In this document: positions 101 through 16,476 of the stretch, in pieces
How positions within the stretch are numbered: position 1 is the first letter of the stretch
How the letters are laid out: each line of letters opens with the position of its first letter
Assembly: GCA_003557485.1 (NCBI GenBank)
Contig: PWOI01000094.1
Location: 1 to 23,022 of the forward strand
Reading direction: 5' to 3'
DNA: 23,022 nt
Source of the DNA: Elusimicrobiota bacterium
GTDB lineage: Bacteria; CG03; SLGR01; PWQF01
Position numbers and translations under genes: made by a program
The notes under the pieces: generated by a model
Told to the model about the DNA's origin: nothing
Seen by the model: only the letters and a program-made list of their open reading frames with translations
Database searches by the model: none

Positions 101-1342
101 ATGATGACCCAGTTAGATGGTACGCAATTGAGAGAAGTTTTGCAAGAAGCGCTGAAGAATGACCAGGATTTTCTTAAAGAGGTCTTGGGTGTAACGCTGC
201 AGGATTTTCTGGAATTTGAACGAGATGAGCAGATTGCTGTAGGCAAGAATGTTAGAGACGAGAATCGTCAGGGAACGCGTAACGGATACAAAGACCGAAG
301 CCTAAATACGCGCCTAGGCCGATTGCAGCTAAAGAAACCCCAGATCAGAGAGTTTCCGTTCACAACAAATCTCTTTGAGAACTATCAGCGCAGTGAAAAA
401 GCGCTACTCATTGCGATCCAGCAGATAGTGATAGATGGTGTATCTACAAATAAAGTTAAGAAGATACTCTCTAAACTTTCTGAGGATTTGAGTTTCTCAA
501 AATCCTCCGTAAGTCGACTGATGCAGGAACTTGACCCAATGATAAAAGAATGGCGAATGAGACAGCTAAGAGAGCGCTACGCTTATTTAATTTCTGACGC
601 CTGTTATTTCTATATCAGGGAGAACAAGAAAGTTGTGAGTATGCCGCTGCTTGTTTCAATCGGGATAGATGAGGAAGGGCGTAGAGATATTCTTGGAGTG
701 GATATGGCTGTCTCTGAAAGTGAAGAAGCCTGGAGAGAGCATCATAGAAAGCTGAAAGCTCGGGGGCTTAAAACAGTAAGCCTCACAATTTCTGACAAGC
801 TTGCAGGACTTGTGAGAGTTCTTAATGAGGAATATGCAGGCAGTCCTCATCAGAGATGCATGGTTCATTTTGAAAGAAATGTGCTTTCAAAGGTCCCTTA
901 CAAAGAAAGGAAAGAACTCGGGAATTATTTAAAGCAGATATATAATTCTCCGACTAGGAAAATGGCTTTGCAAATTGCTTCAATGATTGCGGATGAATAC
1001 AAAAACAGATACCCGGCGGTATCGAGGATATTGAACAGACATGTTGAGGAAACACTCTCATATTTTGAGTTTGCCGAGCATCACTGGAGAAAGATTCGTA
1101 CGACGAATTTAATTGAAGGAACATTAAACAGTATCCTAAAAAAACGGGCTAAAGTAGTAGGAATATTTCCTAATCGTGAATCCTGCATAAGATACGCCTG
1201 CTGTCAGTTGATGGAAATAGCGGAAGATTGGCAAACCGGCAGAAGGTACATGAGAATGAATGGAAATGAGGCTGAAGATGCGGGTGAATTATTAGAGGAA
1301 ATTAGGAAAGTAAAAATGACGGAGGAATTGGTTGCTCACTAA
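101..1342 (+). CDS. IS256-family transposase
   Basis: This 413-residue DDE transposase catalyses cut-and-paste or copy-out movement of the surrounding element. The IS256/MULE-like signature is visible: first catalytic Asp at D166 (ISDACYFYIR), second at D232 (TISDKLAGL), the C-x2-H block QRCMVHFERNVLSKVP starting near 251, and the catalytic Glu at E339 in RTTNLIEGTLN. No frameshift or internal stop is present, so the enzyme may be active. Two ATG codons lie in tandem at 101 and 104. The AAAGGAGG at 91-98 leaves only two bases before the first but five before the second, so translation may begin at 104. The stop codon (1340-1342) touches the right terminal repeat. Nothing downstream on the same strand belongs to the element. 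Confidence 0.95.
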   Translation: MMTQLDGTQLREVLQEALKNDQDFLKEVLGVTLQDFLEFERDEQIAVGKNVRDENRQGTRNGYKDRSLNTRLGRLQLKKPQIREFPFTTNLFENYQRSEKALLIAIQQIVIDGVSTNKVKKILSKLSEDLSFSKSSVSRLMQELDPMIKEWRMRQLRERYAYLISDACYFYIRENKKVVSMPLLVSIGIDEEGRRDILGVDMAVSESEEAWREHHRKLKARGLKTVSLTISDKLAGLVRVLNEEYAGSPHQRCMVHFERNVLSKVPYKERKELGNYLKQIYNSPTRKMALQIASMIADEYKNRYPAVSRILNRHVEETLSYFEFAEHHWRKIRTTNLIEGTLNSILKKRAKVVGIFPNRESCIRYACCQLMEIAEDWQTGRRYMRMNGNEAEDAGELLEEIRKVKMTEELVAH

Positions 1343-4525: not shown

Positions 4526-5419
4526 TCAGGAAAGTTTATTTTCGCTCTTCCGAGTGCCGGTTAACCCGCCTAGAATTTCCCGGGCAAGGCGGCCGTAATT
4601 CATTGTATATAAATGTATGCCCTCAGCAGTGCCGCTGGCTATGATTTCTTCTATTTGACGTCTTGCATATTCTACACCTGCCTTTACCATATCTTCAGGG
4701 TTTGAAGAGTACTTTTTAATTACAAAGTCAAGCTCTCCGGGAATTGAAGCTCCGCTCAGCATTACCATTTTCTTAATCATTGACGCCTTGAAAACAGGCA
4801 TTATACCCGCAGATACCGGCACTTTTATACCGGCAGCCCTTATTCTATCTATATAAGAGTAAAAACAATCATTATTAAAAAAAAGCTGTGTTATGATAAA
4901 TTCTCCGCCTGCGTCAATTTTATTCTTGAGGTATATAATATCTTTTTCATAATTTTCGGATTCAGGGTGCCCTTCAGGATAACCGGCAACACCGGCGCAA
5001 AAATTACCGGCAGCCTTTTTAATAAAGCCTGCAAGGTCGCATGCATACCGGAAATCACCGGCCGTATCGCCTTTCTCTCTTCCCTCCGGTATATCCCCCC
5101 TGAGCGCAAGTATGTTGTTTATATTTTTATCATTGAGCTGCCCGAGAAGACTCTCAATATCCTCCCGGGAACTGTCTATGCAGGTCAGATGCATAAGAGG
5201 TTCGAGGCTGTAGCGGTTTTTAATATCAGAGCTTATCTGCATCGTCCTTTTTTTTGTCCCGCCGCCGGCTCCGTAGGTAACACTTACAAAATGGGGATTT
5301 ACACTGCTTATTTCCTCAATTGTACGGTATATTGAACTTAATTCCGATTCCGGACGAGGCGGGAAAATTTCGCAGGAAAAAACTGTACTGTTCTCCCTGT
5401 ATATATCTGATATTCTCAT
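4526..5419 (-). CDS. metF: Methylenetetrahydrofolate reductase
   Basis: This cytoplasmic flavoenzyme reduces 5,10-methylene-tetrahydrofolate to 5-methyl-tetrahydrofolate, the methyl donor for methionine synthesis and, in some anaerobes, part of the Wood-Ljungdahl methyl branch. At 297 residues it has the short bacterial length with only the catalytic barrel. Visible motifs: SCEIFPP (catalytic Glu at E17), VTYGAGG (47-53), LALRGDIP (104-111, Asp 109), AGYPEGHPES (145-154), FIITQLFF with Gln 178, and GIHLYTMN near the C-terminus. Its ATG overlaps the stop of the upstream gene as ATGA, so translation is coupled. No second pathway gene such as metH or folD is in the window, and its place between an exported multidomain protein and a peptidase is unexplained. 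Confidence 0.95.
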   Translation of the reverse strand: MRISDIYRENSTVFSCEIFPPRPESELSSIYRTIEEISSVNPHFVSVTYGAGGGTKKRTMQISSDIKNRYSLEPLMHLTCIDSSREDIESLLGQLNDKNINNILALRGDIPEGREKGDTAGDFRYACDLAGFIKKAAGNFCAGVAGYPEGHPESENYEKDIIYLKNKIDAGGEFIITQLFFNNDCFYSYIDRIRAAGIKVPVSAGIMPVFKASMIKKMVMLSGASIPGELDFVIKKYSSNPEDMVKAGVEYARRQIEEIIASGTAEGIHLYTMNYGRLAREILGGLTGTRKSENKLS

Positions 5420-7563
5420 CTGTCAGCTGAACCTGTAACTATATATGAAGTTATTCCTGTTTTACGGGATGAAGCGGCCAGATATGTATGTGCTTCTTCA
5501 AAAACAATCCATTGTGTTTTCATATCCGCACCGTCTGTTTCTCCCCTGGCAAGAATATTGCCCTCCATATCAAACACAAGGATACGCCCGTCGCGGGTCC
5601 CGCAGGAAAAAATTGCGTCAAAGGGATGCTTTGATGATGAAGTAACAGCAGCAATTTCACTGTATCCAAGTATAAGTTCCCACTTAATGTTACCGTCAAA
5701 GTCAATAAGCTTAAGCACTTCGTTTTCCCTTGAAGTTCCCGAAACAAGTATTGAACCGTTTAGCGGCCTGGCAAAGGAAGTAACTATTCCTGTTTTGATA
5801 ACTTTTTCAAGTTCTCCGAAAGGTGTAAAAATCATAACCGGACCGCCCGCAGAGGCGGCCAGTATACCCGGTGAGTCGCCCCCGTATTCAATAACATCAA
5901 CAGAAACGACATTATGTATCCGGGTGCTGGTAAATATGACTGTGCCGTCGCCAGAAACAGCCTTAAGCCCCTTAAGTCCCGCAAGCCCTAAAATCATTTC
6001 AAACGAGCCGTCAGCTGTTAAATCTGCAGACTTAACGGTATTAACAGAAGGCGGATATGAAAAGACAGAAACTGTTTTAGCTTTTTCATCTACTATATGC
6101 ACGCTGCTTCCTGCATGGCTGTAAAGAATAAAGTTCATCTCTCCCTTATCTTTCAGAGGCATTAATTCAAGCCTGCTGTAATCGGAAGGAATATTAATTG
6201 ACTCTTCTATTTCACCCCGGGAATTAATACTGTAAAGATTCCCGCCCGGCCCGATCGCATATATCTTTTCATTTGTCTTAATATCAGAAACATTAAGAGG
6301 AAGATTCCACTGCGGCAGCATTCCCTTGAATTTTGCGGGCTGAACCATTCCTGCGGAAATAAGTGCGGCTCCCTCCGTTATAAGAGCTGTTTCTTCCGCG
6401 ATTATCGAGCTTAGAGAATCAAAATAGCCGGAATAAGCCTGCTGTATTTCACCCTGAAGGCCTACTGTTACAGCAGAGGGAAATCGCCGGAGTCCTATTG
6501 AGTCCAAAACATACGGCTGCTTATCCAGCGCCCCTGTAAAAATATTACCGGTATCTTCAATAAGTTTCTCAAGCTCCTCTTCGGTTCCGGTACGCGAAAC
6601 AAGGATCAACTCTGTATCTTTCAGCTTGCCATATTCTCTTGCTATCTCTTTAACAAAAGTTCTGGACTCATCTTCTTCCGGCCGGACAAAAATCAGAATA
6701 ACGATACGTCCCTTAAAATCAGATAGACTGAACCTGCGGCCGTCTAATGCGGCAAATGAATAACCACCCATATACCGTCCTGTAAGCGGAAATACGGATT
6801 CTTCCGGCCGCAGAAGATTGTCTGAAACACGGGCGCTGTCCGGGGGAGAAAAAGAAAAAACCATCGGGTCAATCTTACTGTCAAAAACTGCATTATCATA
6901 AATTTCAACATAATGCATATCTACCTGACCCGAGTCGGTATTTGCTGAAACAGTCATATTTAACTCTATTTTTTTTATGGAAAAGGTATCCTTTTCCACA
7001 ACAATAGATACTTTATAGTTGTTTTCCCGCATATCAATAATATAGTAAACTTTACCATCAATTTCTTCGGTACGGGCAGGATAGGCCGAAGAAGTATCTA
7101 TGAAGTTTTCAGGAGACGAAGCAAAAGCAAAAAGAGCAAACTGCTGGATTGTGAAATCACTATACGAATCAAGGTCGGGCACAAGGACCTCCTCAAAAGA
7201 ATCAGGAGCGCCTATAATCGAATACTGTTCAAAATAGGGTACATAAACCCACATATTCTTACCGTCGCTTACAATTGTCCTTCCGAAAACACCGTCCAGA
7301 TGAAGCAGAGAAAACTTATTGGGATGCTGGATATCTATTTTGTACTCGGAAGCAAAACGGTTTTCAGCTCCGGCGCTGCGTATGGTCCTCATTATTCTGG
7401 CATAGGATGAATAGGTTTCAAAGCCGGAATATTTCTCAAATACTTTTTGAAGTATTTCGGAAGAAGACGGAGTAGAACCCTCTGTTGAAGCAGGTACTGA
7501 AAAAATTATAAATGCAAAGACAGTGAGAAGATATTTAAAATGTTTTAATTTATAAGGAAACAC
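5416..7563 (-). CDS. Exported three-domain protein: LolA-like, thioredoxin-like without cysteines, beta-propeller
   Basis: I do not recognise a named family for the whole 715-residue chain. An N-terminal signal peptide (about 1-28) is followed by a LolA/LolB-like lipoprotein-carrier fold (about 32-240: SDGKNMWVYVPY and related strands). Next comes a redoxin/TlpA-like domain (about 262-390) recognisable from the DFKGRIVILIFVR strand and the cis-proline loop RRFPSAVTV (359-367). Where TlpA proteins have WCxxC it reads FVRPEEDES, so redox activity is unlikely. The rest (about 410-715) has repeated beta strands of the PQQ/VCBS propeller kind. The start is GTG at 7561-7563, with GGAGG at 7576-7580 about 12 bases upstream; no later start keeps the signal peptide. 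It lies 2 bases after the ATP-grasp gene and overlaps metF by 4. A periplasmic binding or scaffold role is inference. Confidence 0.75.
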   Translation of the reverse strand: MFPYKLKHFKYLLTVFAFIIFSVPASTEGSTPSSSEILQKVFEKYSGFETYSSYARIMRTIRSAGAENRFASEYKIDIQHPNKFSLLHLDGVFGRTIVSDGKNMWVYVPYFEQYSIIGAPDSFEEVLVPDLDSYSDFTIQQFALFAFASSPENFIDTSSAYPARTEEIDGKVYYIIDMRENNYKVSIVVEKDTFSIKKIELNMTVSANTDSGQVDMHYVEIYDNAVFDSKIDPMVFSFSPPDSARVSDNLLRPEESVFPLTGRYMGGYSFAALDGRRFSLSDFKGRIVILIFVRPEEDESRTFVKEIAREYGKLKDTELILVSRTGTEEELEKLIEDTGNIFTGALDKQPYVLDSIGLRRFPSAVTVGLQGEIQQAYSGYFDSLSSIIAEETALITEGAALISAGMVQPAKFKGMLPQWNLPLNVSDIKTNEKIYAIGPGGNLYSINSRGEIEESINIPSDYSRLELMPLKDKGEMNFILYSHAGSSVHIVDEKAKTVSVFSYPPSVNTVKSADLTADGSFEMILGLAGLKGLKAVSGDGTVIFTSTRIHNVVSVDVIEYGGDSPGILAASAGGPVMIFTPFGELEKVIKTGIVTSFARPLNGSILVSGTSRENEVLKLIDFDGNIKWELILGYSEIAAVTSSSKHPFDAIFSCGTRDGRILVFDMEGNILARGETDGADMKTQWIVFEEAHTYLAASSRKTGITSYIVTGSADR

Positions 7564-7565
7564 GG

Positions 7566-9035
7566 TTATTTGCTTCCTCCTGTTTTCAGAAACGAATAAT
7601 AGTCCAGGGAATCCTGAAACCAGCTCTTTATGTTAGAAGTAAAAGAGTCGAAGTTCTGGGCAAGGCAGAACCCCCTTGCGGAGTCGGCATTTCCCTCGCA
7701 TATAAATCCGTCAACGGGAGCTATATCAAACTGGACCCGCGCCGGTATTTTGCCAGCAAGTTCATCCGGAAAAGTACCAATGAAAATTTTAAACGCTTCC
7801 GCCCCTTTTTTAAGAAGCCCGAAAAACTTACGGCCGCCTCCCGCGGCGCTTACCATTAGAGGATTGACCGGGAGCAACCGGTCAAGCTCAAGCTCTCCTG
7901 TCTGCTTGTTTGAGATGTTGTCCGCGCCTGCATATCCTATTCCTTCATCAGTGAATTTTATCTGGAAAAGCCGGGCATATATAGTTTCAACTATTATTCC
8001 CGCCCTGCTCAAACGGTAATGGGCCCTCAGCCCCCAGGTGCCGAAATTAATATAGCGATTGACAAGAGGAGCATATCTCCTGCTGAATTTCTTTTCAAAA
8101 AGCTCTATGGCACCGGCAAGCTTTTTAACGGCTTGCTCTCTATCCATCAATTCCGGCTTCGGAGATTTTCCAAGCAGATCCTTCAGTTCCTGAGGACTCT
8201 TCAATTCTGTTTCTATATAGTTTTTATTAAGTACCTTTGATGACTTAAATTTATTGTAAATCCACCATAGTTCCTCAATGGCTTCTTTCGAATCGGGGTC
8301 TACAGTCAGTGGCTCTATACGCGTCTCTTCAACTATCCCCGAAAGGCGTGACATATCAGGAAGAGAAAAACAGGTTTTTCCCCCGTTTCTTTTAAGTGTA
8401 AGCCTGAAGCCTCCCAGACCTCCGCCACCGGTAGTGGGTTTAACGAAAAACATATCTGATTCTATATCCGCGCATGCCGCGTCAAGAATAGCAGATGCAA
8501 CATCCGAAGGAGTTTTTCCTTCAGGGTCAATAAATCTGTATTTCGCAATAAGCCCTTCTCCGCCGTTGTCGGCCAGCATACGGTATGTTTTAAGTTTATT
8601 TGAAAAAATACCGCCCGGAGCTGTCCACTGTCCCGGAGAAGAGACGCTGCCCTGTTTTTCTATACGCTCAACTGTTTTAAGGTTATAACAGTTTCGGTTA
8701 ACACACTGTGAAATCACAAGAGAAGAGCCGGGTTTTGCGGAAAGCCGGGCAAGAAGCTCTTTCTCCGTATTAACAACACTCCCTTCTCCACAAACATTTC
8801 TGGATTCGGAAGTTGCCGGCAGTTTGTCATCAGATGCGTCTACCCATATTATATTGTCAGGGAGAATAGACCTTTCTGGATATGTCAGGCGTGTATTTTT
8901 GTACTCATCAAGGGAATTCAGCCATTTGTTGAAGTTTTGCTTTAACTCCTCGGCAAAGGCGTTATCCGAACCGTCAAAGCGGCGGGCCGCCTCAAGAAGT
9001 TCATCTGTATAACTTTTTGGATTTCTTTTATTCAT
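7566..9035 (-). CDS. ATP-grasp-type ligase, divergent (second of the pair)
   Basis: A 489-residue cytoplasmic protein that probably joins a carboxylate to an amine through an acylphosphate using ATP. ATP-grasp landmarks: SNKLKTYRML (145-154), the strand and glycine-rich loop FFVKPTTGGGGLGGFRL (196-212, Lys 199 as adenine-side ligand), and the magnesium-binding end VQFDIAPVDGFICEGNAD (434-451, with D437, E447 and N449). The canonical E-x-N-P-R is EGNADS here, so the family is remote and the substrate unknown. The open frame runs upstream to 9218, but that would overlap the preceding gene by 190 bases. I chose the ATG at 9033-9035, which overlaps the upstream stop as ATGAATAA. It has no close similarity to the neighbouring ATP-grasp protein, so it is not a recent duplicate. 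Confidence 0.75.
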   Translation of the reverse strand: MNKRNPKSYTDELLEAARRFDGSDNAFAEELKQNFNKWLNSLDEYKNTRLTYPERSILPDNIIWVDASDDKLPATSESRNVCGEGSVVNTEKELLARLSAKPGSSLVISQCVNRNCYNLKTVERIEKQGSVSSPGQWTAPGGIFSNKLKTYRMLADNGGEGLIAKYRFIDPEGKTPSDVASAILDAACADIESDMFFVKPTTGGGGLGGFRLTLKRNGGKTCFSLPDMSRLSGIVEETRIEPLTVDPDSKEAIEELWWIYNKFKSSKVLNKNYIETELKSPQELKDLLGKSPKPELMDREQAVKKLAGAIELFEKKFSRRYAPLVNRYINFGTWGLRAHYRLSRAGIIVETIYARLFQIKFTDEGIGYAGADNISNKQTGELELDRLLPVNPLMVSAAGGGRKFFGLLKKGAEAFKIFIGTFPDELAGKIPARVQFDIAPVDGFICEGNADSARGFCLAQNFDSFTSNIKSWFQDSLDYYSFLKTGGSK

Positions 9036-10371
9036 ATATGATCTTATTGTATATTTTTTTGACTGTTCGTTCAATCCGGTTTTTAAGGCTTTTAAGGTCA
9101 TCTTTAAGAACCCTGCCGGGAAAATGAATTTTCGCAACCGGAGCCGAAGGGTCAAGAATACTATCGCTGAAAGGCACTGCGCAGCAGAGCGCAAATTCGC
9201 CCGGCCCCCGGCAGTCATTCACAGAGTATCCTTCTCTCAGAAAAACAGGTTCACCTTTCTTTAATTTATATATTCCGGGGCTGAGACTGCCTTTTATCCG
9301 GATAGTCTTTCCGGTCAGGTTGTGAAGTATAACCTGCGACCCCTCCGGATCAAATATAAAATCATCACCGGAACTGACGGGGAGAAATTGCGCTATATGC
9401 TTAAGTACAAGAGGACTCCTGCGAAATTTCAATTCAAGCTGTGTCAGCAGAGAGGTGGAATTCTGGAACCTGGGGTTTATTTCCACAGGATAAACATTAC
9501 TGCCGTCGCATATAAGGTCCAGCCCCATCATTCCCCGGAAACCATTTTTTGACATATAAAGTCCGGTTTTTTCTGTTATATCATTAATCCTATTTTTAAC
9601 GCTATCGCTCACCGCGGACGCCGATGAAAAGTCGTTACCTGAGAAACCGAATCTCCTGTCAGTCAAAGAAGGAGATCCTATTACCTGCAGAGAAACGGGA
9701 GACAGAAAGACCTCCCCGTTTCCAACTACAGCGTTTATATTCAGCGAAAATCCGTGAAGGTACCTGTATATTATAAGGGGATATATTACGCCGCTTCCCA
9801 GGGCACGGTCAAAATCTTCCAGGGAATGTATTAAGAAAGTGTTTTCCCCGGAGGAACCCACCGGAAACTGAAGAACAAAAGGCAGGCCCCATTTTTTCTT
9901 AAGAGAAGAGTAATTCGCGGCATTTTTTTCCACTATTTCACCGGGCATAGGGTCAATGCCGGATTTAAACTGCCATTTTCTGAAAAGTATCTTATTATCA
10001 AACCTGTTTTTCAATCCTACAGGCGCAGAGATTATTTTTATATTCCCGTTTCCTGCCGCCTCTCTTTCAATACCTTCTATTGAACGGTACATAATGCAGT
10101 TCATAGGCCGAGAAAACTTTTTATCAATTTCTTTTTTAAGTTTTCCCTCAAATACGAATTTAAGATCGTTATTAGAAAAATTCTTTCTTCTTCCCTCCTT
10201 TTTTTCAAGGGATATAATTTTTTCTTCTCCCCATTTTTCAGCTATATCGATTCCCCAATCACAGCAGACCAGAAGGTCCAGCCCCGTAATTTCACTGATG
10301 GCAAGCCCGTCATGGGCTCTCTGGCCCCACCAGCTCCAACGGTATTTTTTTAATTCGTCGAAATTACTCAT
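9028..10371 (-). CDS. ATP-grasp-type carboxylate-amine ligase (first of the pair)
   Basis: A 447-residue protein with a clear ATP-grasp core: the central strand and loop LPFVLQFPVGSSGENTF (163-179), and the magnesium site GFRGMMGLDLICDG to PVEINPRF (277-302, with D285, E297, N299 and R301). This is the classic layout of enzymes that form amide or peptide bonds via an acylphosphate, such as carbamoyl-phosphate and D-Ala ligases or PylC-like enzymes. The C-terminal 130 residues form an extra domain. The N-terminus is unusually rich in Trp (YRWSWWGQRAHDGLA). The ATG at 10369-10371 gives an 8-base overlap (ATGAGTAA) with the DUF1704 gene. A start at 10398 in the same frame is possible but would overlap 35 bases. 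The acceptor and donor cannot be told from sequence. Confidence 0.82.
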   Translation of the reverse strand: MSNFDELKKYRWSWWGQRAHDGLAISEITGLDLLVCCDWGIDIAEKWGEEKIISLEKKEGRRKNFSNNDLKFVFEGKLKKEIDKKFSRPMNCIMYRSIEGIEREAAGNGNIKIISAPVGLKNRFDNKILFRKWQFKSGIDPMPGEIVEKNAANYSSLKKKWGLPFVLQFPVGSSGENTFLIHSLEDFDRALGSGVIYPLIIYRYLHGFSLNINAVVGNGEVFLSPVSLQVIGSPSLTDRRFGFSGNDFSSASAVSDSVKNRINDITEKTGLYMSKNGFRGMMGLDLICDGSNVYPVEINPRFQNSTSLLTQLELKFRRSPLVLKHIAQFLPVSSGDDFIFDPEGSQVILHNLTGKTIRIKGSLSPGIYKLKKGEPVFLREGYSVNDCRGPGEFALCCAVPFSDSILDPSAPVAKIHFPGRVLKDDLKSLKNRIERTVKKIYNKIIYE

Positions 10372-11422
10372 TGACCATATAAGCCGGCGGCAGAACAAGT
10401 CCTTCTTTCATCATGTCTCTTACGCGGCCCCTGTCCCCGAAAGCTATTTTACCCGCAAAAAGTATGCGGGGAAAATCTTTTTCTTTTTTTATTTCCTCTA
10501 TTTTCCTGTATCCCGTTATGTAATGAATATCTTTTGTCAGAGCGCCGGGACAGGATGTGTCTTCCAGTCCTCTTTTTGCCCTTTCTGTAAGCCTGTATGC
10601 CAAATCCGGAGGAAACCACTGCAGAAGTAAATTAAAAACTTCCCTGAAGGATTTTTCAATACCTGAACGGACAGCCATAAGCCGGCCGGCATAAACCTTC
10701 ATCTGTTCCGGGGGAGATTGTCCGCCTGATGTTTCAAAATAAACAGCAAGCCCCTCTTCCGCTTCATTATATCCGGCAGTTCCTGTTTTAAATATAGGCC
10801 ATTTCTGTCTTGCGCCGTTTAATGCGCGAAAAATATGAACCTCTATTTCATGTACAGCCAGTCTTTTATCCTCACCGTGTAAAAATTTTGAAGAACTGTT
10901 TATGCATATGGTATTTTCAGCGGGTTTTATATTCATTTTAGAGGCCATATCTTTTTTCATCTCTATTCTCCAGCCCTTTATTGATCTCTTAAGAAGTTCT
11001 TCTTTAATGGCTTTTTTTATTTCCCGCGCGGTAACAGGCTCGGAAAAATCACTGCCGCTTCCGGAGAGAACTCCATCGGCAAAACTTACATCCTCTTCTG
11101 AAGGCAAGCCGAATATTTTACCGGAAATGTCAGTAAAACGCCCAGGATCCGGGCGGGCGGCAAGAAGAGAGCATTTATGGAGCGTTTCTTTTCTTAGCCT
11201 TCTGTAAAATTCAGATACGGGAGACGGGCCTTCACTTTTTAGATTTTTGGCCATTCTGTATACTTCCATAATGTCAGCGCCGTCATAACTGTACCTGAAA
11301 ACAGGATTATATACGGAAGACCCCAGGAACTTTTTCCTCTCTTCTTCCCTGTTTAAGGGCAGCAGGCGTCTGTAGAAATCCAGTGATTCCTGAATTTTTA
11401 AAAATTGACTGAAAAATTTCAT
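10364..11422 (-). CDS. DUF1704 / MATCAP-like metallopeptidase (QEGLA-motif family)
   Basis: A 352-residue probable zinc carboxypeptidase related to the family that includes the eukaryotic tubulin tyrosine carboxypeptidase MATCAP and the bacterial QEGLA-motif proteins. The signature is present: HEIEVH at 191-196, an HExxxH motif (family form HEIGTH, so GT is replaced by EV), followed by Arg 199, then NEAEEGLAVY with the EEGLA motif at 222-226. No signal peptide is seen, so it should act in the cytoplasm. It is the first gene of the operon and is followed by two ATP-grasp ligase genes through coupled overlaps, implying that all three work on one peptide- or amide-containing compound. No clear Shine-Dalgarno precedes the ATG at 11420-11422. 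Bacterial substrates of this family are not established as far as I know. Confidence 0.82.
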   Translation of the reverse strand: MKFFSQFLKIQESLDFYRRLLPLNREEERKKFLGSSVYNPVFRYSYDGADIMEVYRMAKNLKSEGPSPVSEFYRRLRKETLHKCSLLAARPDPGRFTDISGKIFGLPSEEDVSFADGVLSGSGSDFSEPVTAREIKKAIKEELLKRSIKGWRIEMKKDMASKMNIKPAENTICINSSSKFLHGEDKRLAVHEIEVHIFRALNGARQKWPIFKTGTAGYNEAEEGLAVYFETSGGQSPPEQMKVYAGRLMAVRSGIEKSFREVFNLLLQWFPPDLAYRLTERAKRGLEDTSCPGALTKDIHYITGYRKIEEIKKEKDFPRILFAGKIAFGDRGRVRDMMKEGLVLPPAYMVNE

Positions 11423-11516: not shown

Positions 11517-12905
11517 ATGTACAGGAAATTAACGGAAAAACGAATAAAGTCACTGAAAAGCATTACCGGCGACAATAATGTTCTTACGGAAACCGCAGAC
11601 ATAGAAAAATACTCTACAGACGAGTCACCGGACCTTAAGTATATGCCGGAAACAGTCCTGACACCTGAAAACCACCGACAGGTACTTGAGATTGCCAGAT
11701 ATGCCGTTTCGGAAAAGTTTGCTCTTACGCCAAGAGGAGGAGGAACCTCGCTTACGGGCTCTCCTCTGCCCGTTTCGGGAGGAGCCGTTATTTCATTTGA
11801 GAAAATGAATAATATACTTGATATTGATACTTCTTCGCGCATGGCGGTGCTTCAGCCGGGGGTTATAACCGGTGATCTGGACAGACAGGCTGCTAAATAC
11901 GGGCTTTTTTACCCTGTTAATCCTGCATCTCTTGACTCCTGCACGCTTGGAGGAAATGCAGCAACTGCGGCAGGAGGAGCAAATACAGTCCGGTACGGAA
12001 CTACAAGAAATTACCTGTCAGGGATAAAGGCGGTAGACGGGAATGCCGCAGAGTGGCAAGCCGGCGGAAAGATAGTAAAAAATTCAACAGACCAACAGCT
12101 TCTGCAGCTGGTTGCAGGAAGCGAAGGAACCCTCTCTATTTTCACTTCCCTTGTCTTCAGGCTGACTGAAAGGCCTGAAAAAAACGCATGGATTATAGCT
12201 CCGTTCCGTGACACAGCCAAAGTTCCGGTGGCGGCGGCAAAAATATTTTCCCTTTCACTTAATCCCACGATGGTTGAACTAATGGACAGGCTTACGCTTG
12301 ATTGCTGCCGGAAATATACAGGGGAGAAAATAGAATTTGATGAATACAGCCATCTTCTTATACGCCTTGATTCCGGCGGGCATCTTTCATCTTCTGCCTT
12401 CCAGGACATTCTCTTTACTGCAGGACAGGCCTGCCTTCAGGCAGGCGCGGAGGATGTTCTTATTGCAGAGTCCGCCGCAGAGCAGGAAAAAATATGGAAG
12501 ATCCGTAGTTCCATACACGACGCGATAAAGGAAACCTGCGGCTCCATATTTGAGGAAGACGTTACAGTCCCTGTAGGGCAGGTCTCACAGCTCCTGACAG
12601 AAGCACGCAATATTTCTGAATCCACAGGTTATGAAACGGCTGTATACGGCCACCTGGGAGACGGTAATATACATGTAAATTTTACCGGCAGGAACGCGCC
12701 GGCAAAAAAGATTAAAGAAATGAAAAAATCAATTTTCGAGGCGGCACTGAAACTTGGAGGAAAACTCTCAGGTGAGCACGGTATAGGACTTACAAAGAAA
12801 GATTATTTCTGCAGGTACGTTGACCCCTCCTATGTCAACCTTCTCAGGAAAGTAAAAAAACAGTTTGATCCGGAGAACATACTTAATCCGGGCAAAATAT
12901 TTTAA
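11517..12905 (+). CDS. FAD-binding oxidase, GlcD / D-lactate dehydrogenase family
   Basis: A 462-residue flavoprotein of the VAO/PCMH fold that oxidises a 2-hydroxy acid such as glycolate or D-lactate to the 2-oxo acid. The FAD-binding half shows TPRGGGTSLTG (71-81), the AAGGANTVRYGTTRNYLSG block (151-169) and VAGSEGTLSIFT (199-210). The C-terminal FAD-oxidase half shows YGHLGDGNIHVNF (377-389), LSGEHGIGLTKKDYF (418-431) and the closing DPENILNPGKIF. Length and motifs are complete. It is the only host gene on the plus strand and has no adjacent glcE, glcF or electron-transfer flavoprotein genes, so its electron acceptor is unclear. The ATG at 11517 has no obvious Shine-Dalgarno. The 3' end overlaps the convergent COG3014-like gene by four bases. 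Confidence 0.92.
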   Translation: MYRKLTEKRIKSLKSITGDNNVLTETADIEKYSTDESPDLKYMPETVLTPENHRQVLEIARYAVSEKFALTPRGGGTSLTGSPLPVSGGAVISFEKMNNILDIDTSSRMAVLQPGVITGDLDRQAAKYGLFYPVNPASLDSCTLGGNAATAAGGANTVRYGTTRNYLSGIKAVDGNAAEWQAGGKIVKNSTDQQLLQLVAGSEGTLSIFTSLVFRLTERPEKNAWIIAPFRDTAKVPVAAAKIFSLSLNPTMVELMDRLTLDCCRKYTGEKIEFDEYSHLLIRLDSGGHLSSSAFQDILFTAGQACLQAGAEDVLIAESAAEQEKIWKIRSSIHDAIKETCGSIFEEDVTVPVGQVSQLLTEARNISESTGYETAVYGHLGDGNIHVNFTGRNAPAKKIKEMKKSIFEAALKLGGKLSGEHGIGLTKKDYFCRYVDPSYVNLLRKVKKQFDPENILNPGKIF

Positions 12906-14210: not shown

Positions 14211-14801
14211 TCAGCCCCTTATATATTTTTTGATCTCTTTATTTCCAATCCAGACTTTCTGGTTGGTCGCAGTATGGATAAGCTCAAGGTTTACCTGGTA
14301 ATATATTACCCGCCTTCTTCCTTCCTGGTCTACTATTGAATTTACGCTGCCTGTAAGCATATAGTCGGCTCCTATTTCACGCATAAACTCAGCTACGGTC
14401 TCCTCGGAGGCCCATTCCTGCATATCCATACGTTCCTCCCGGACCTGCTCCCTCTCATCTGCTGAAGCAACCATATTAACCATACCGGAATTAATAAAAG
14501 CCCTTTCCAGGTCTTTAGTGAAAGTTTCGGTTACTATATGCTCGTCCGTCCTGTTAACAACGTTGCCCACTATAACCGTAGGCTGTTTACCTTCACGCTC
14601 TATGAAATTTCCGAGCCACGGCCTTTCAAGCGCATCTTTTATCATTTCTTCCGATACCAGGCGGGAATCGGTGGCGTTCCACCTGCCTGAAAGGTCGATC
14701 TGTTCATCAACTCCTATCCTGGCAACCCGTTTACGGCCACACCCCGATGCAATACCGGCAACAAGAACAAACGCGGCTAATAATAGATAACTTCTTTTCA
14801 T
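14211..14801 (-). CDS. LpoB-like lipoprotein, copy 2
   Basis: A 196-residue lipoprotein (lipobox ASGC, Cys 21, Gly at +2) of the LpoB family. In Escherichia coli LpoB crosses the periplasm from the outer membrane to activate the peptidoglycan synthase PBP1B. The family pattern is clear: DLSGRWNATDSRLV (36-49), PTVIVGNVVNRTDEHI, TFTKDLERAFINSG, SADEREQVREERMDMQ, GADYMLTGSVNSI and the ending YYQVNLELIHTATNQKVWIGNKEIKKYI. It is a paralogue of the gene just upstream. The strong Shine-Dalgarno GGGAGGAAGG lies 6-7 bases before the ATG in a 65-base gap, so this copy can be translated independently of its neighbour. No penicillin-binding protein gene is in the window. Confidence 0.88.
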   Translation of the reverse strand: MKRSYLLLAAFVLVAGIASGCGRKRVARIGVDEQIDLSGRWNATDSRLVSEEMIKDALERPWLGNFIEREGKQPTVIVGNVVNRTDEHIVTETFTKDLERAFINSGMVNMVASADEREQVREERMDMQEWASEETVAEFMREIGADYMLTGSVNSIVDQEGRRRVIYYQVNLELIHTATNQKVWIGNKEIKKYIRG

Positions 14802-14866
14802 TTCTTCCTTCCTCCCTTTTAAACGGTTCTTTCAACCCCTCTAATATTAATTTTAATCAAACAGCC

Positions 14867-15472
14867 TTAAAAAGCAAACAGCGGCCTTCGTATATATTTT
14901 TTAATACTTTCCTGTCCCGACCAGATCACCCTGTTGGTTTCAAGGTCTATGAGGTTCAGGTCTGCCTGATAATAAACTACACGTTCCCCTCCCTCCTCGT
15001 CCAATATGGAATTAAGGACACCTGTAAGAATAAAATCAGCTCCGTACTCTGCTCCGAACTCCCTTGCGGTTTCTATTGAGGCCCACTGCTGCATATCGGC
15101 CCTTTCCTCTCTGACCTGTTCTCTTTCCTCTGCCGAGGCCACCAGATTTATTTCACCGGAGTTAAGCATTTCCCTTTCGAGATCCTTTATAAAAGTAAGA
15201 ACATCTATATGCTCGAAAGTCCTGTTTCTGACACGCCCTACTATAACTACGGGGTTTCTCTCTTCCCGGGAGTGGAACCTCCTGTACCATCCCCCGTCAA
15301 GAACCTGGTTGATAAGAGATTCAGCCACAAGTGCGGAATCTGTTGAACTCCAGCGCCCGGAAAGTTCTATCTCATAATCCGATTCCAGCCGCGCAACTCT
15401 TTTACCGCCGCAGCCTGCTGTAATCATAACGGCAAATAAAAGAAACGCTGCTGCGCAACTGCCCGGCTTCAT
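14867..15472 (-). CDS. LpoB-like lipoprotein, copy 1
   Basis: A 201-residue lipoprotein (lipobox TAGC, Cys 21, Gly at +2) with the same family pattern as the downstream copy: ELSGRWSSTDSALV, PVVIVGRVRNRTFEHI, TFIKDLEREMLNSG, SAEEREQVREERADMQ, GADFILTGVLNSI and YYQADLNLIDLETNRVIWSGQESIKKYI. The two copies share motifs throughout yet differ at many positions, so the duplication is old or the copies have diverged to serve different partners. Its ATG overlaps the stop of the FecR-domain gene as ATGA, so those two are translationally coupled. An activator of a class A penicillin-binding protein is the family role; here it is inferred. Confidence 0.88.
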   Translation of the reverse strand: MKPGSCAAAFLLFAVMITAGCGGKRVARLESDYEIELSGRWSSTDSALVAESLINQVLDGGWYRRFHSREERNPVVIVGRVRNRTFEHIDVLTFIKDLEREMLNSGEINLVASAEEREQVREERADMQQWASIETAREFGAEYGADFILTGVLNSILDEEGGERVVYYQADLNLIDLETNRVIWSGQESIKKYIRRPLFAF

Positions 15473-16476
15473 TTTTCTTCAAGCTCCCGCCTTCTTCTCT
15501 GCCTTTCCTCTTCTATTCTCTTCAAGCGCTGCTCTATAATCTCTTTTCTCTGCTGCTCTATAATCAATCGCCTGCGTTCTGCCTGCTCCTGTCTTATTCC
15601 GCTGTAGCGGAGCCTTATTTCTTCAAGAATTTCTGACCGGGCCTCTTTTTCTCTTTCCAGAGCAGCCTGCTCCGTTCTGAGACGGCCTATTTTTTCTCTT
15701 ATCGGACCCTGTTCTTCAGCAGGAGCGGCGCGCAAAAGGCCTCTCTGGCGCCTGAGATATGCCTCCACGGCCCGGAGGCGCCTGAGATTAAGAAAAGACT
15801 GCATCCTTTCATCAAAGTGTATCCACCGCAGCTGCCTTGTATCGGTTATTTCACCTATAATTACCGGAGCCTCTGCAAGACGTGCGGATGCAGCAAAATT
15901 TTCACTTACTTCAACAGGGGGAAAATATGCCTCTTCTGCCGGGACTGCTGCCAGCAATATACTCCCCCCGTATACTTCAACTTCACATAAACCTTCTTTT
16001 TCATATATCACTGCAAAATCAGTTCCTCTCACTGAAGCTACGGCAACGGGCGTATGTATATCCATCTTTTCCCGGTCAATGCCGGATATGCGGGCCCGGA
16101 GGGCGCCGTAAAACATTTCAATAGAGGTTTCTTCTCCTTTTGACTTTACTTCAAAAGAAGTTTCTTCATCCATATCTATCTGCTTATCAGCATCCAGATA
16201 GATACGCGCAAATGAATCCGGACCCGTTCTGACAGTCGACCCTTCTTCTAAAACCGTTCCGCTCTCTACAACGGTCCATTCGCTTTCACCGGGAAGAATT
16301 ACCATAACCTCTCCCTCAAAGTAAGAAAAACTCTCAAGAGGGCTAGCCGGAACTGATATTTCTTCGGGTTTAGGATCAAGCGGTACCGCGGTATCAGGAG
16401 AGGTTTTAGCGCACCCGTACAATATCAATAAAAATAAGCTCACAAACGTTAAAAAATATTTCATGTTTCTATTCAA
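15469..16476 (-). CDS. FecR-domain lipoprotein with C-terminal coiled coil
   Basis: A 335-residue predicted outer-membrane lipoprotein (LYGC, Cys 22, Ala at +2). Residues about 52-175 form a FecR beta domain, with the hallmark TPVAVASVRGTDFAV at 142-156 and a GDGSxVRT-like GSTVRTGPDSFARIYL at 79-94. From about 215 to the end the chain is almost pure Arg/Glu/Gln/Leu heptad-like helix, probably a long coiled coil. There is no TonB receptor or sigma factor nearby, so it is not the FecIR iron-signalling type; FecR domains also occur in peptidoglycan-associated proteins. The start is TTG at 16474-16476, chosen because AGGAGA at 16484-16489 is seven bases before it, while the first ATG (16462-16464) is 19 bases away and would shorten the signal peptide. 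Confidence 0.82.
   Translation of the reverse strand: MNRNMKYFLTFVSLFLLILYGCAKTSPDTAVPLDPKPEEISVPASPLESFSYFEGEVMVILPGESEWTVVESGTVLEEGSTVRTGPDSFARIYLDADKQIDMDEETSFEVKSKGEETSIEMFYGALRARISGIDREKMDIHTPVAVASVRGTDFAVIYEKEGLCEVEVYGGSILLAAVPAEEAYFPPVEVSENFAASARLAEAPVIIGEITDTRQLRWIHFDERMQSFLNLRRLRAVEAYLRRQRGLLRAAPAEEQGPIREKIGRLRTEQAALEREKEARSEILEEIRLRYSGIRQEQAERRRLIIEQQRKEIIEQRLKRIEEERQRRRRELEEK

What the first reader, a model, noticed from the sequence alone, without database searches (positions are those of the whole stretch)
7566..11422. Coupled cassette of a DUF1704 metallopeptidase and two unrelated ATP-grasp ligases
The three genes are joined by two 8-base overlaps, so they are made together. 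An HExxxH/EEGLA peptidase (H191, E192, H196, E222/E223) next to two ATP-dependent ligases (one with a classic D285/E297/N299 site, one remote with a GGGG loop) implies that a peptide or amide is built and then trimmed or recycled. MATCAP, the characterised relative, removes a C-terminal tyrosine. I know of no defined bacterial pathway with this set. It could make a short peptide, a modified amino acid or a conjugated cofactor. This is the best candidate in the window for an undescribed system.
Basis: partly seen in the sequence, partly recalled or inferred. Interest (0 to 1): 0.72.

Follow-up and report, generated by a model that had tools for sequence, protein, structure and literature searches.

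The report
Two peptide ligases plus trimming peptidase
Three overlapping genes of an uncultured Elusimicrobia-type bacterium encode two enzymes that probably join amino acids and one relative of the human tubulin-trimming peptidase MATCAP; the block is kept or lost as a unit, and it is a new variant of the known 'ligase plus peptidase' theme whose product is unknown.

Summary
Three minus-strand genes overlap by 8 bp twice: a MATCAP/DUF1704 metallopeptidase (11422-10364), an ATP-grasp ligase of the D-Ala-D-Ala ligase/CPSase type (10371-9028), and a 489-aa protein (9035-7566) with ATP-grasp-like motifs but no Pfam or NCBIfam match. The refutation test is passed: the same three genes are contiguous in another family of the order (44-52% identity) and split only by a contig end in a congener. 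In same-order genomes lacking them, the corresponding site is empty, so they behave as one block. The ligase pair is the more stable unit: it recurs in another phylum, where 14 of 18 genomes have the second ligase and none has MATCAP, with a P-loop enzyme between the ligases. MATCAP genes elsewhere often sit beside other ATP-grasp genes; all six long-form loci have a GshB-like ATP-grasp directly downstream. So 'ligase plus MATCAP peptidase' is a recurring bacterial theme, and this set is a new variant with an undescribed ligase family. Best guess: a small non-ribosomal peptide or amide is built by two ligases and trimmed or recycled by the carboxypeptidase; a protein-tag writer/eraser pair is the main rival. 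Substrates are unknown.

The parts
10364..11422 (-). MATCAP/DUF1704 zinc metallopeptidase, 352 aa, HEIEVH 191-196 and EEGL 222-225, short 'EEGL' class, no signal peptide apparent
   Evidence: PF08014 150 bits over cut-off 27; TIGR02421 155 bits, below its cut-off 338.65; matches human KIAA0895L structure 7z5g at 6e-21; tree
10364..10371 (-). 8-bp overlap ATGAGTAA between peptidase and first ligase
   Evidence: sequence
9028..10371 (-). ATP-grasp ligase 1 (P0002), 447 aa, catalytic D285/E297/N299
   Evidence: PF02655 34 bits over cut-off 23; Foldseek and VIA matches to biotin carboxylase/PurK/CPSase/D-Ala-D-Ala ligase; conserved residues
9028..9035 (-). 8-bp overlap ATGAATAA between ligase 1 and ligase 2
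   Evidence: sequence
7566..9035 (-). Probable ATP-grasp ligase 2 (P0001), 489 aa, undescribed family; SNKxxTY 145-151, FFVKPxxGGGGxG 196-208, Dx9EGN 437-449; long insertion between the last two motifs
   Evidence: no Pfam/NCBIfam hit; 16-sequence alignment; weak profile match to GshB-like only at the glycine loop
5416..7563 (-). Operon context, not part of the cassette: exported DUF2092/LolA-like + redoxin + propeller protein
   Evidence: 2-nt gap to ligase 2; kept in the order without the cassette
4526..5419 (-). Operon context: MetF (methylenetetrahydrofolate reductase family)
   Evidence: follows the DUF2092 gene with the cassette and, in G004 and G007, without it

Best explanation
The three genes encode one cytosolic pathway that makes and trims a small non-ribosomal peptide or amide. 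Ligase 1 (ATP-grasp, amino-acid-ligase type) activates a carboxylate as acyl phosphate and joins it to an amine. Ligase 2, a divergent ATP-grasp, makes a second bond, giving a two-step product. The MATCAP-type zinc carboxypeptidase removes a C-terminal residue from the product or from a precursor, to finish, proofread or recycle it. Shown: gene order, overlaps, conservation, block behaviour, catalytic residues, fold of ligase 1, fixed pairing of the ligases across two phyla, recurrence of MATCAP beside ATP-grasp genes. Inferred: that ligase 2 is ATP-grasp, that both bonds are peptide/amide bonds, the direction of the pathway, and that the target is a small molecule.
For: Same three genes, same order, contiguous in G002 at 44-52% identity and split only by a contig end in G001 at 70-79%. 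All three are confined to the same 3 of 16 phylum genomes. In G003, G004 and G005 the corresponding site, upstream of CobO-DUF2092 and next to a GlcD-type oxidase in G004 and G005, is empty. The ligases recur as a pair in another phylum: ligase 2 in 14 of 18 genomes, the P-loop gene and then ligase 1 beside it in all loci long enough to show them, MATCAP in 0 of 18. That a BioD/DUF1611-like P-loop enzyme takes the third place, beside a Dpp-type peptide ABC transporter, fits small-peptide metabolism. Six of six long MATCAP loci have a GshB-like ATP-grasp overlapping or within about 33 nt downstream; L010 has a circularly permuted ATP-grasp 1 nt downstream. GshB and QEGLA genes with consecutive locus tags are listed at 38- and 28-fold in a Photobacterium low-salinity experiment (PMC10308900).
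Against: No substrate or product is known. Ligase 2 has no profile-level link to ATP-grasp (probability 3% and 2%). The exact three-gene set is seen only in one order. The ligases persist without MATCAP in another phylum, so the peptidase is not essential to their chemistry. Short-class MATCAPs in G403, G404 and G133 have no ATP-grasp neighbour recognised. By fold alone ligase 1 could be carboxylase-like rather than an amino-acid ligase.
Confidence: 0.5

Rival explanations
1. Protein-tag writer and eraser: the ligases add residues to the C terminus or a side chain of a protein and MATCAP removes them, as RimK/RimB do on ribosomal protein S6 and TTL(L)/MATCAP do on tubulin.
For: The characterised MATCAP homologues act on protein C-terminal tails and remove Tyr and Glu (PMC10499314). 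An ATP-grasp ligase paired with a peptidase that undoes its work is established in bacteria for RimB/RimK (PMC11957791; PMC12239564). The human sequence aligns through the RAKRGxxDTSxPG..KD segment.
Against: No target protein gene travels with the block. The pair without MATCAP carries a P-loop metabolic-type enzyme and lies by a peptide transporter. Two distant ligases are not needed for one tag.
Confidence: 0.22
2. Cofactor conjugation: the ligases attach amino acids to folate or another pterin/corrinoid and MATCAP trims them; MetF and CobO neighbours would be the pathway context.
For: MetF follows in G000, G001 and G002 and CobO in G002.
Against: CobO-DUF2092 is kept in order members without the cassette, and DUF2092-MetF in G004 and G007, so the link is to the site, not to the cassette. 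FolC is present in all seven genomes tested, so no folate ligase is being replaced.
Confidence: 0.1
3. Graspetide-like RiPP maturation, with the peptidase as leader protease.
For: ATP-grasp enzymes mature graspetides (PMC8939145, abstract).
Against: Overlapping genes leave no room inside the block for a precursor; ligase 1 and 2 score to none of the graspetide maturase models.
Confidence: 0.04
4. No shared pathway: three accessory genes that merely travel and are transcribed together.
For: Only three genomes of one order carry the full set, and the ligases and MATCAP live apart elsewhere.
Against: Overlaps, 44-52% divergence without rearrangement, whole-block presence or absence, and the repeated pairing of MATCAP with ATP-grasp genes of other lineages.
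Confidence: 0.14

Closest known systems
FGase - long DUF1704 (QEGLA) - GshB-like ATP-grasp loci (annotated as N-formylglutamate amidohydrolase, 'flavohemoglobin expression-modulating QEGLA motif protein', glutathione synthase)
   Same: MATCAP-family peptidase directly coupled to an ATP-grasp ligase; 6 of 6 long loci examined
   Different: Peptidase about 610-635 aa with an extra N-terminal part and a QEG(L/I) motif, in a separate starred clade; one ligase of GshB type; FGase gene upstream where seen (L013, L014, L046, L048). Its own function is also undetermined in the papers held.
Human MATCAP/TMCP1 (KIAA0895L) and the tubulin tyrosination/glutamylation cycle (TTL and TTLL are ATP-grasp ligases)
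   Same: Same peptidase family and motifs; pairing of an adding ATP-grasp ligase with a removing carboxypeptidase
   Different: Ligases here belong to other ATP-grasp branches; no tubulin or other target is known; only the catalytic C-terminal half aligns well
RimB-RimK (and RloA-RloC) of Pseudomonas
   Same: ATP-grasp ligase and peptidase in one operon; RimB removes what RimK adds (PMC11957791, PMC12239564)
   Different: Peptidase is retropepsin-like, not a zinc HExxxH enzyme; ligase is RimK; one ligase, not two
PRK06524-type 'biotin carboxylase' ATP-grasp loci of Rhizobium/Roseobacter plasmids
   Same: Nearest named relatives of ligase 1 (NF005096, 83 bits; about 25-28% identity); in Roseobacter ponti next to an aminotransferase, a C45 peptidase and a peptide ABC transporter
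   Different: Far below that family's cut-off (684); no ligase 2 relative in the plasmid collection; other peptidase
P0005-P0006-P0004 trio in the phylum of G289/G152
   Same: Both ligases, 27-37% identical, in one locus
   Different: MATCAP absent (0 of 18 genomes); a BioD/DUF1611-like P-loop protein lies between the ligases

Membership tests
MATCAP / DUF1704 (PF08014) | Whole-protein score over the curated cut-off | tested here: met
   150.2 bits against 27
MATCAP / DUF1704 (PF08014) | HExxxH plus EEG/QEG metal site | tested here: met
   HEIEVH 191-196, EEGL 222-225; same motifs described for TMCP1 (PMC10499314)
MATCAP / DUF1704 (PF08014) | Carboxypeptidase activity on a peptide C terminus | not testable with these tools
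   needs an enzyme assay
QEGLA equivalog TIGR02421 | Score over NCBI cut-off 338.65 | tested here: not met
   155.1 bits
ATP-grasp superfamily, ligase 1 | Profile over cut-off and metal/ATP residues | tested here: met
   PF02655 34.4 over 23.2; D285, E297, N299 invariant; ATP-grasp folds top the structure lists, from a model of mean pLDDT 53
ATP-grasp superfamily, ligase 1 | Amino-acid ligase rather than carboxylase activity | not testable with these tools
   fold matches include D-Ala-D-Ala ligase, SAOUHSC_02373 (7r8q), CPSase, PurK and biotin carboxylase
ATP-grasp superfamily, ligase 2 | Profile match to a known ATP-grasp family | tested here: inconclusive
   no ATP-grasp Pfam hit in any of 16 members; hhalign to GshB-like covers 21 columns at the glycine loop, probability 3%
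ATP-grasp superfamily, ligase 2 | Ordered motifs: NK..Y, KP.xGGGG, D..E.N | tested here: met
   invariant or nearly invariant positions in A8; judged by eye, not independent of the hypothesis
ATP-grasp superfamily, ligase 2 | ATP-grasp fold | tested here: inconclusive
   AlphaFold pLDDT 37 with three sequences
RimB-RimK system | Retropepsin-type peptidase with RimK ligase | tested here: not met
   peptidase is PF08014; neither ligase matches the RimK models
Graspetide (RiPP) pathway | Precursor peptide gene inside the block | tested here: not met
   genes overlap, no room for one within the block; a distant precursor is not excluded
Folate polyglutamylation (FolC replacement) | FolC missing where the cassette is present | tested here: not met
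   FolC over cut-off in 7 of 7 genomes

The most novel reading that the evidence does not exclude
The two ligases define an unrecognised two-step non-ribosomal peptide (or amide) pathway, one ligase from an undescribed ATP-grasp branch, whose third enzyme is interchangeable between phyla (MATCAP carboxypeptidase or a BioD/DUF1611-like P-loop enzyme); and bacterial MATCAP enzymes in general erase what neighbouring ATP-grasp ligases write, a bacterial counterpart of the eukaryotic tubulin tyrosination/glutamylation cycle.
Probability: 0.3. Interest if true: 0.75.

Novelty: new variant of a known kind. Interest (0 to 1): 0.52.

Why it matters
To my knowledge bacterial members of the MATCAP family have no established substrate, and the eukaryotic ones were recognised as tubulin carboxypeptidases only recently. 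Showing that bacterial MATCAPs are repeatedly coupled to ATP-grasp ligases of different lineages gives a testable handle on what they cleave: the product of the neighbouring ligase. The cassette is compact (three genes, no export signal apparent) and includes a ligase family with no name, so one co-expression and mass-spectrometry experiment could reveal a new peptide or a new protein modification.

Tried and rejected
AlphaFold of ligase 2 with a 3-sequence alignment gave pLDDT 37 and was not used for fold search. Profile comparison of the two ligases with each other and with GshB-like sequences gave no usable alignment. Solved-structure searches with ligase 2 hit only VPS28 helical regions and other chance-level entries. 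Ligase 2 has no relative in the plasmid collection. A genome-contig scan found only the two near relatives. A motif regex was tried, but it was tuned on the family and missed the GshB-like proteins themselves, so it is not evidence. MetF/CobO/DUF2092 as pathway partners were rejected because they stay together without the cassette. Folate-ligase replacement was rejected by FolC presence. No anti-phage model matches. The divergent ATP-grasp gene next to the G233 MATCAP is 444 bp away and is not conserved in G403/G404, so it is not counted as support. GC and GC3 of the cassette do not differ clearly from neighbours, so there is no compositional sign of recent transfer. Repeat and promoter/terminator scans gave nothing specific. 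Iyer et al. 2009 on amidoligases is not held, so whether it already lists DUF1704-ATP-grasp neighbourhoods could not be checked.
Full report
Observation. The peptidase gene runs 11422-10364 (352 aa), ligase 1 10371-9028 (447 aa) and ligase 2 9035-7566 (489 aa), all on the minus strand, with 8-bp overlaps ATGAGTAA and ATGAATAA. Downstream genes follow with almost no gaps: a DUF2092/redoxin/propeller protein, MetF and an M16-type peptidase, so the cassette heads a longer probable operon.

Identity of the proteins. The peptidase is MATCAP/DUF1704 (150 bits, cut-off 27) but falls far below the NCBI QEGLA equivalog cut-off. Its HEIEVH and EEGL motifs are kept across bacteria, and a four-sequence profile matches human KIAA0895L structures at 6e-21 through the catalytic half. 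Ligase 1 passes Pfam ATP-grasp_3; its nearest named relative is the PRK06524 'biotin carboxylase' family (83 bits). A modest model (pLDDT 53) matches ATP-grasp folds of the biotin carboxylase, PurK, CPSase and D-Ala-D-Ala ligase groups. Ligase 2 has no Pfam or NCBIfam match, and its 15 homologues have only scattered chance-level Pfam hits. It carries three ATP-grasp-like motifs in the right order, conserved across the 16 sequences, and the only profile alignment to a GshB-like set is at the glycine loop, at low probability. I call it a probable ATP-grasp, at about 85% by judgement; its model is unusable.

Conservation of the block. Close relatives are deposited as Elusimicrobia. In a congener (G001) and in another family of the order (G002) the three genes occur in the same order at 70-79% and 44-52% identity; in G001 a contig break falls inside ligase 1. 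Of 16 genomes of the phylum, the same three carry the peptidase, ligase 1 at ortholog level and ligase 2. In order members without the cassette (G003, G004, G005) the site reads CobO - DUF2092, with a divergent GlcD-type FAD oxidase on the other side in G004 and G005. In the window the three genes lie exactly between the same oxidase (11517-12905) and the DUF2092 gene; in G002 they precede CobO, and the oxidase flank is beyond the contig end. So the block is gained or lost whole. Whether it was inserted or deleted is not resolved. DUF2092 with CobO, and with MetF in G004 and G007, stay together without the cassette, so these neighbours belong to the site rather than to the cassette.

Wider distribution. 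A search of 386 sampled genomes with the ligase 2 profile found it in only one further lineage, G152 and G289 (a third weak hit at E 0.004 is chance-level). In that phylum 14 of 18 genomes carry it. There ligase 1 and ligase 2 homologues flank a 389-aa protein with a BioD/DUF1611-type P-loop, beside a divergent Dpp-type ABC transporter, and no MATCAP is found. The two ligases are therefore the stable core and the third gene is exchangeable.

MATCAP elsewhere. Sixteen of 386 sampled genomes have it. Three groups appear. The long form (about 610-635 aa; six loci, a starred clade) is in all six followed directly by a GshB-like ATP-grasp gene, with an FGase-like gene upstream in L013, L014, L046 and L048. 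The 450-aa form (L012, L043, L044, L045) shows no ATP-grasp neighbour with the probes used. The short EEGL form is mixed: the window and its two relatives with two ligases; L010 with a circularly permuted ATP-grasp 1 nt downstream; G403, G404 and G133 with none recognised. In Photobacterium damselae, genes annotated GshB and QEGLA with consecutive locus tags RS17020 and RS17025 are listed at 38- and 28-fold in a low-salinity experiment (PMC10308900), which fits a shared operon. The pairing of MATCAP with ATP-grasp genes of several lineages is the strongest general hint that the peptidase acts on ligase products.

Mechanism. The favoured reading is a short pathway: two ATP-dependent ligations and a C-terminal trimming step, for a small peptide or amide. 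Established knowledge used: ATP-grasp enzymes form acyl phosphates and join carboxylates to amines; human MATCAP/TMCP enzymes remove C-terminal tyrosine and glutamates from tubulin and shorten glutamate side chains (PMC10499314); RimB undoes RimK glutamylation (PMC11957791). The main rival, a protein tag written by the ligases and erased by MATCAP, is not excluded. A cofactor role is weakened by FolC being present in all seven genomes tested and by the neighbours being independent of the cassette. A graspetide role is weakened by the lack of room for a precursor gene in the block.

Known or new. The general kind (ATP-grasp ligase plus peptidase) is known, and MATCAP-ATP-grasp neighbourhoods recur. 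New here are the composition, the undescribed ligase 2 family, the fixed ligase pair across two phyla with an exchanged third enzyme, and the whole-block behaviour. No paper held describes it, but the 2009 amidoligase survey, the most likely place for a prior mention, could not be read.

Noticed in passing
window 4526-7563 (minus): An exported DUF2092/LolA-like + redoxin + beta-propeller protein stays next to MetF and/or CobO through the order, with or without the cassette; the reason for this pairing is not known.
   Followed up: partly
L037 8924-10093 and relatives in L038, L053-L066: A 389-aa protein with a BioD/DUF1611-type P-loop, no family over cut-off, between the two ligase homologues throughout that phylum.
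   Followed up: partly
L037 3794-7201: A nucleotide-carrier-like membrane protein apparently fused to HEAT repeats and a cyclic-nucleotide-binding domain follows ligase 2 in the second phylum and is conserved there.
   Followed up: no
window 14211-15472 (minus): Two tandem homologous small lipoproteins next to a FecR-like domain protein (15469-16476); the lipoproteins are syntenic in another order member (L093).
   Followed up: no
window 101-1342 (+): Mutator/IS256-type transposase gene near the window edge.
   Followed up: no
L041 936-3249 (minus): A MATCAP gene directly followed by a PqqD-like/membrane protein and an efflux-adaptor-like gene, suggesting yet another MATCAP context.
   Followed up: no
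L019 6674-7189: MetF in the congener MAG reads as a truncated ORF in the list, although translated similarity continues over the full length (L086).
   Followed up: no
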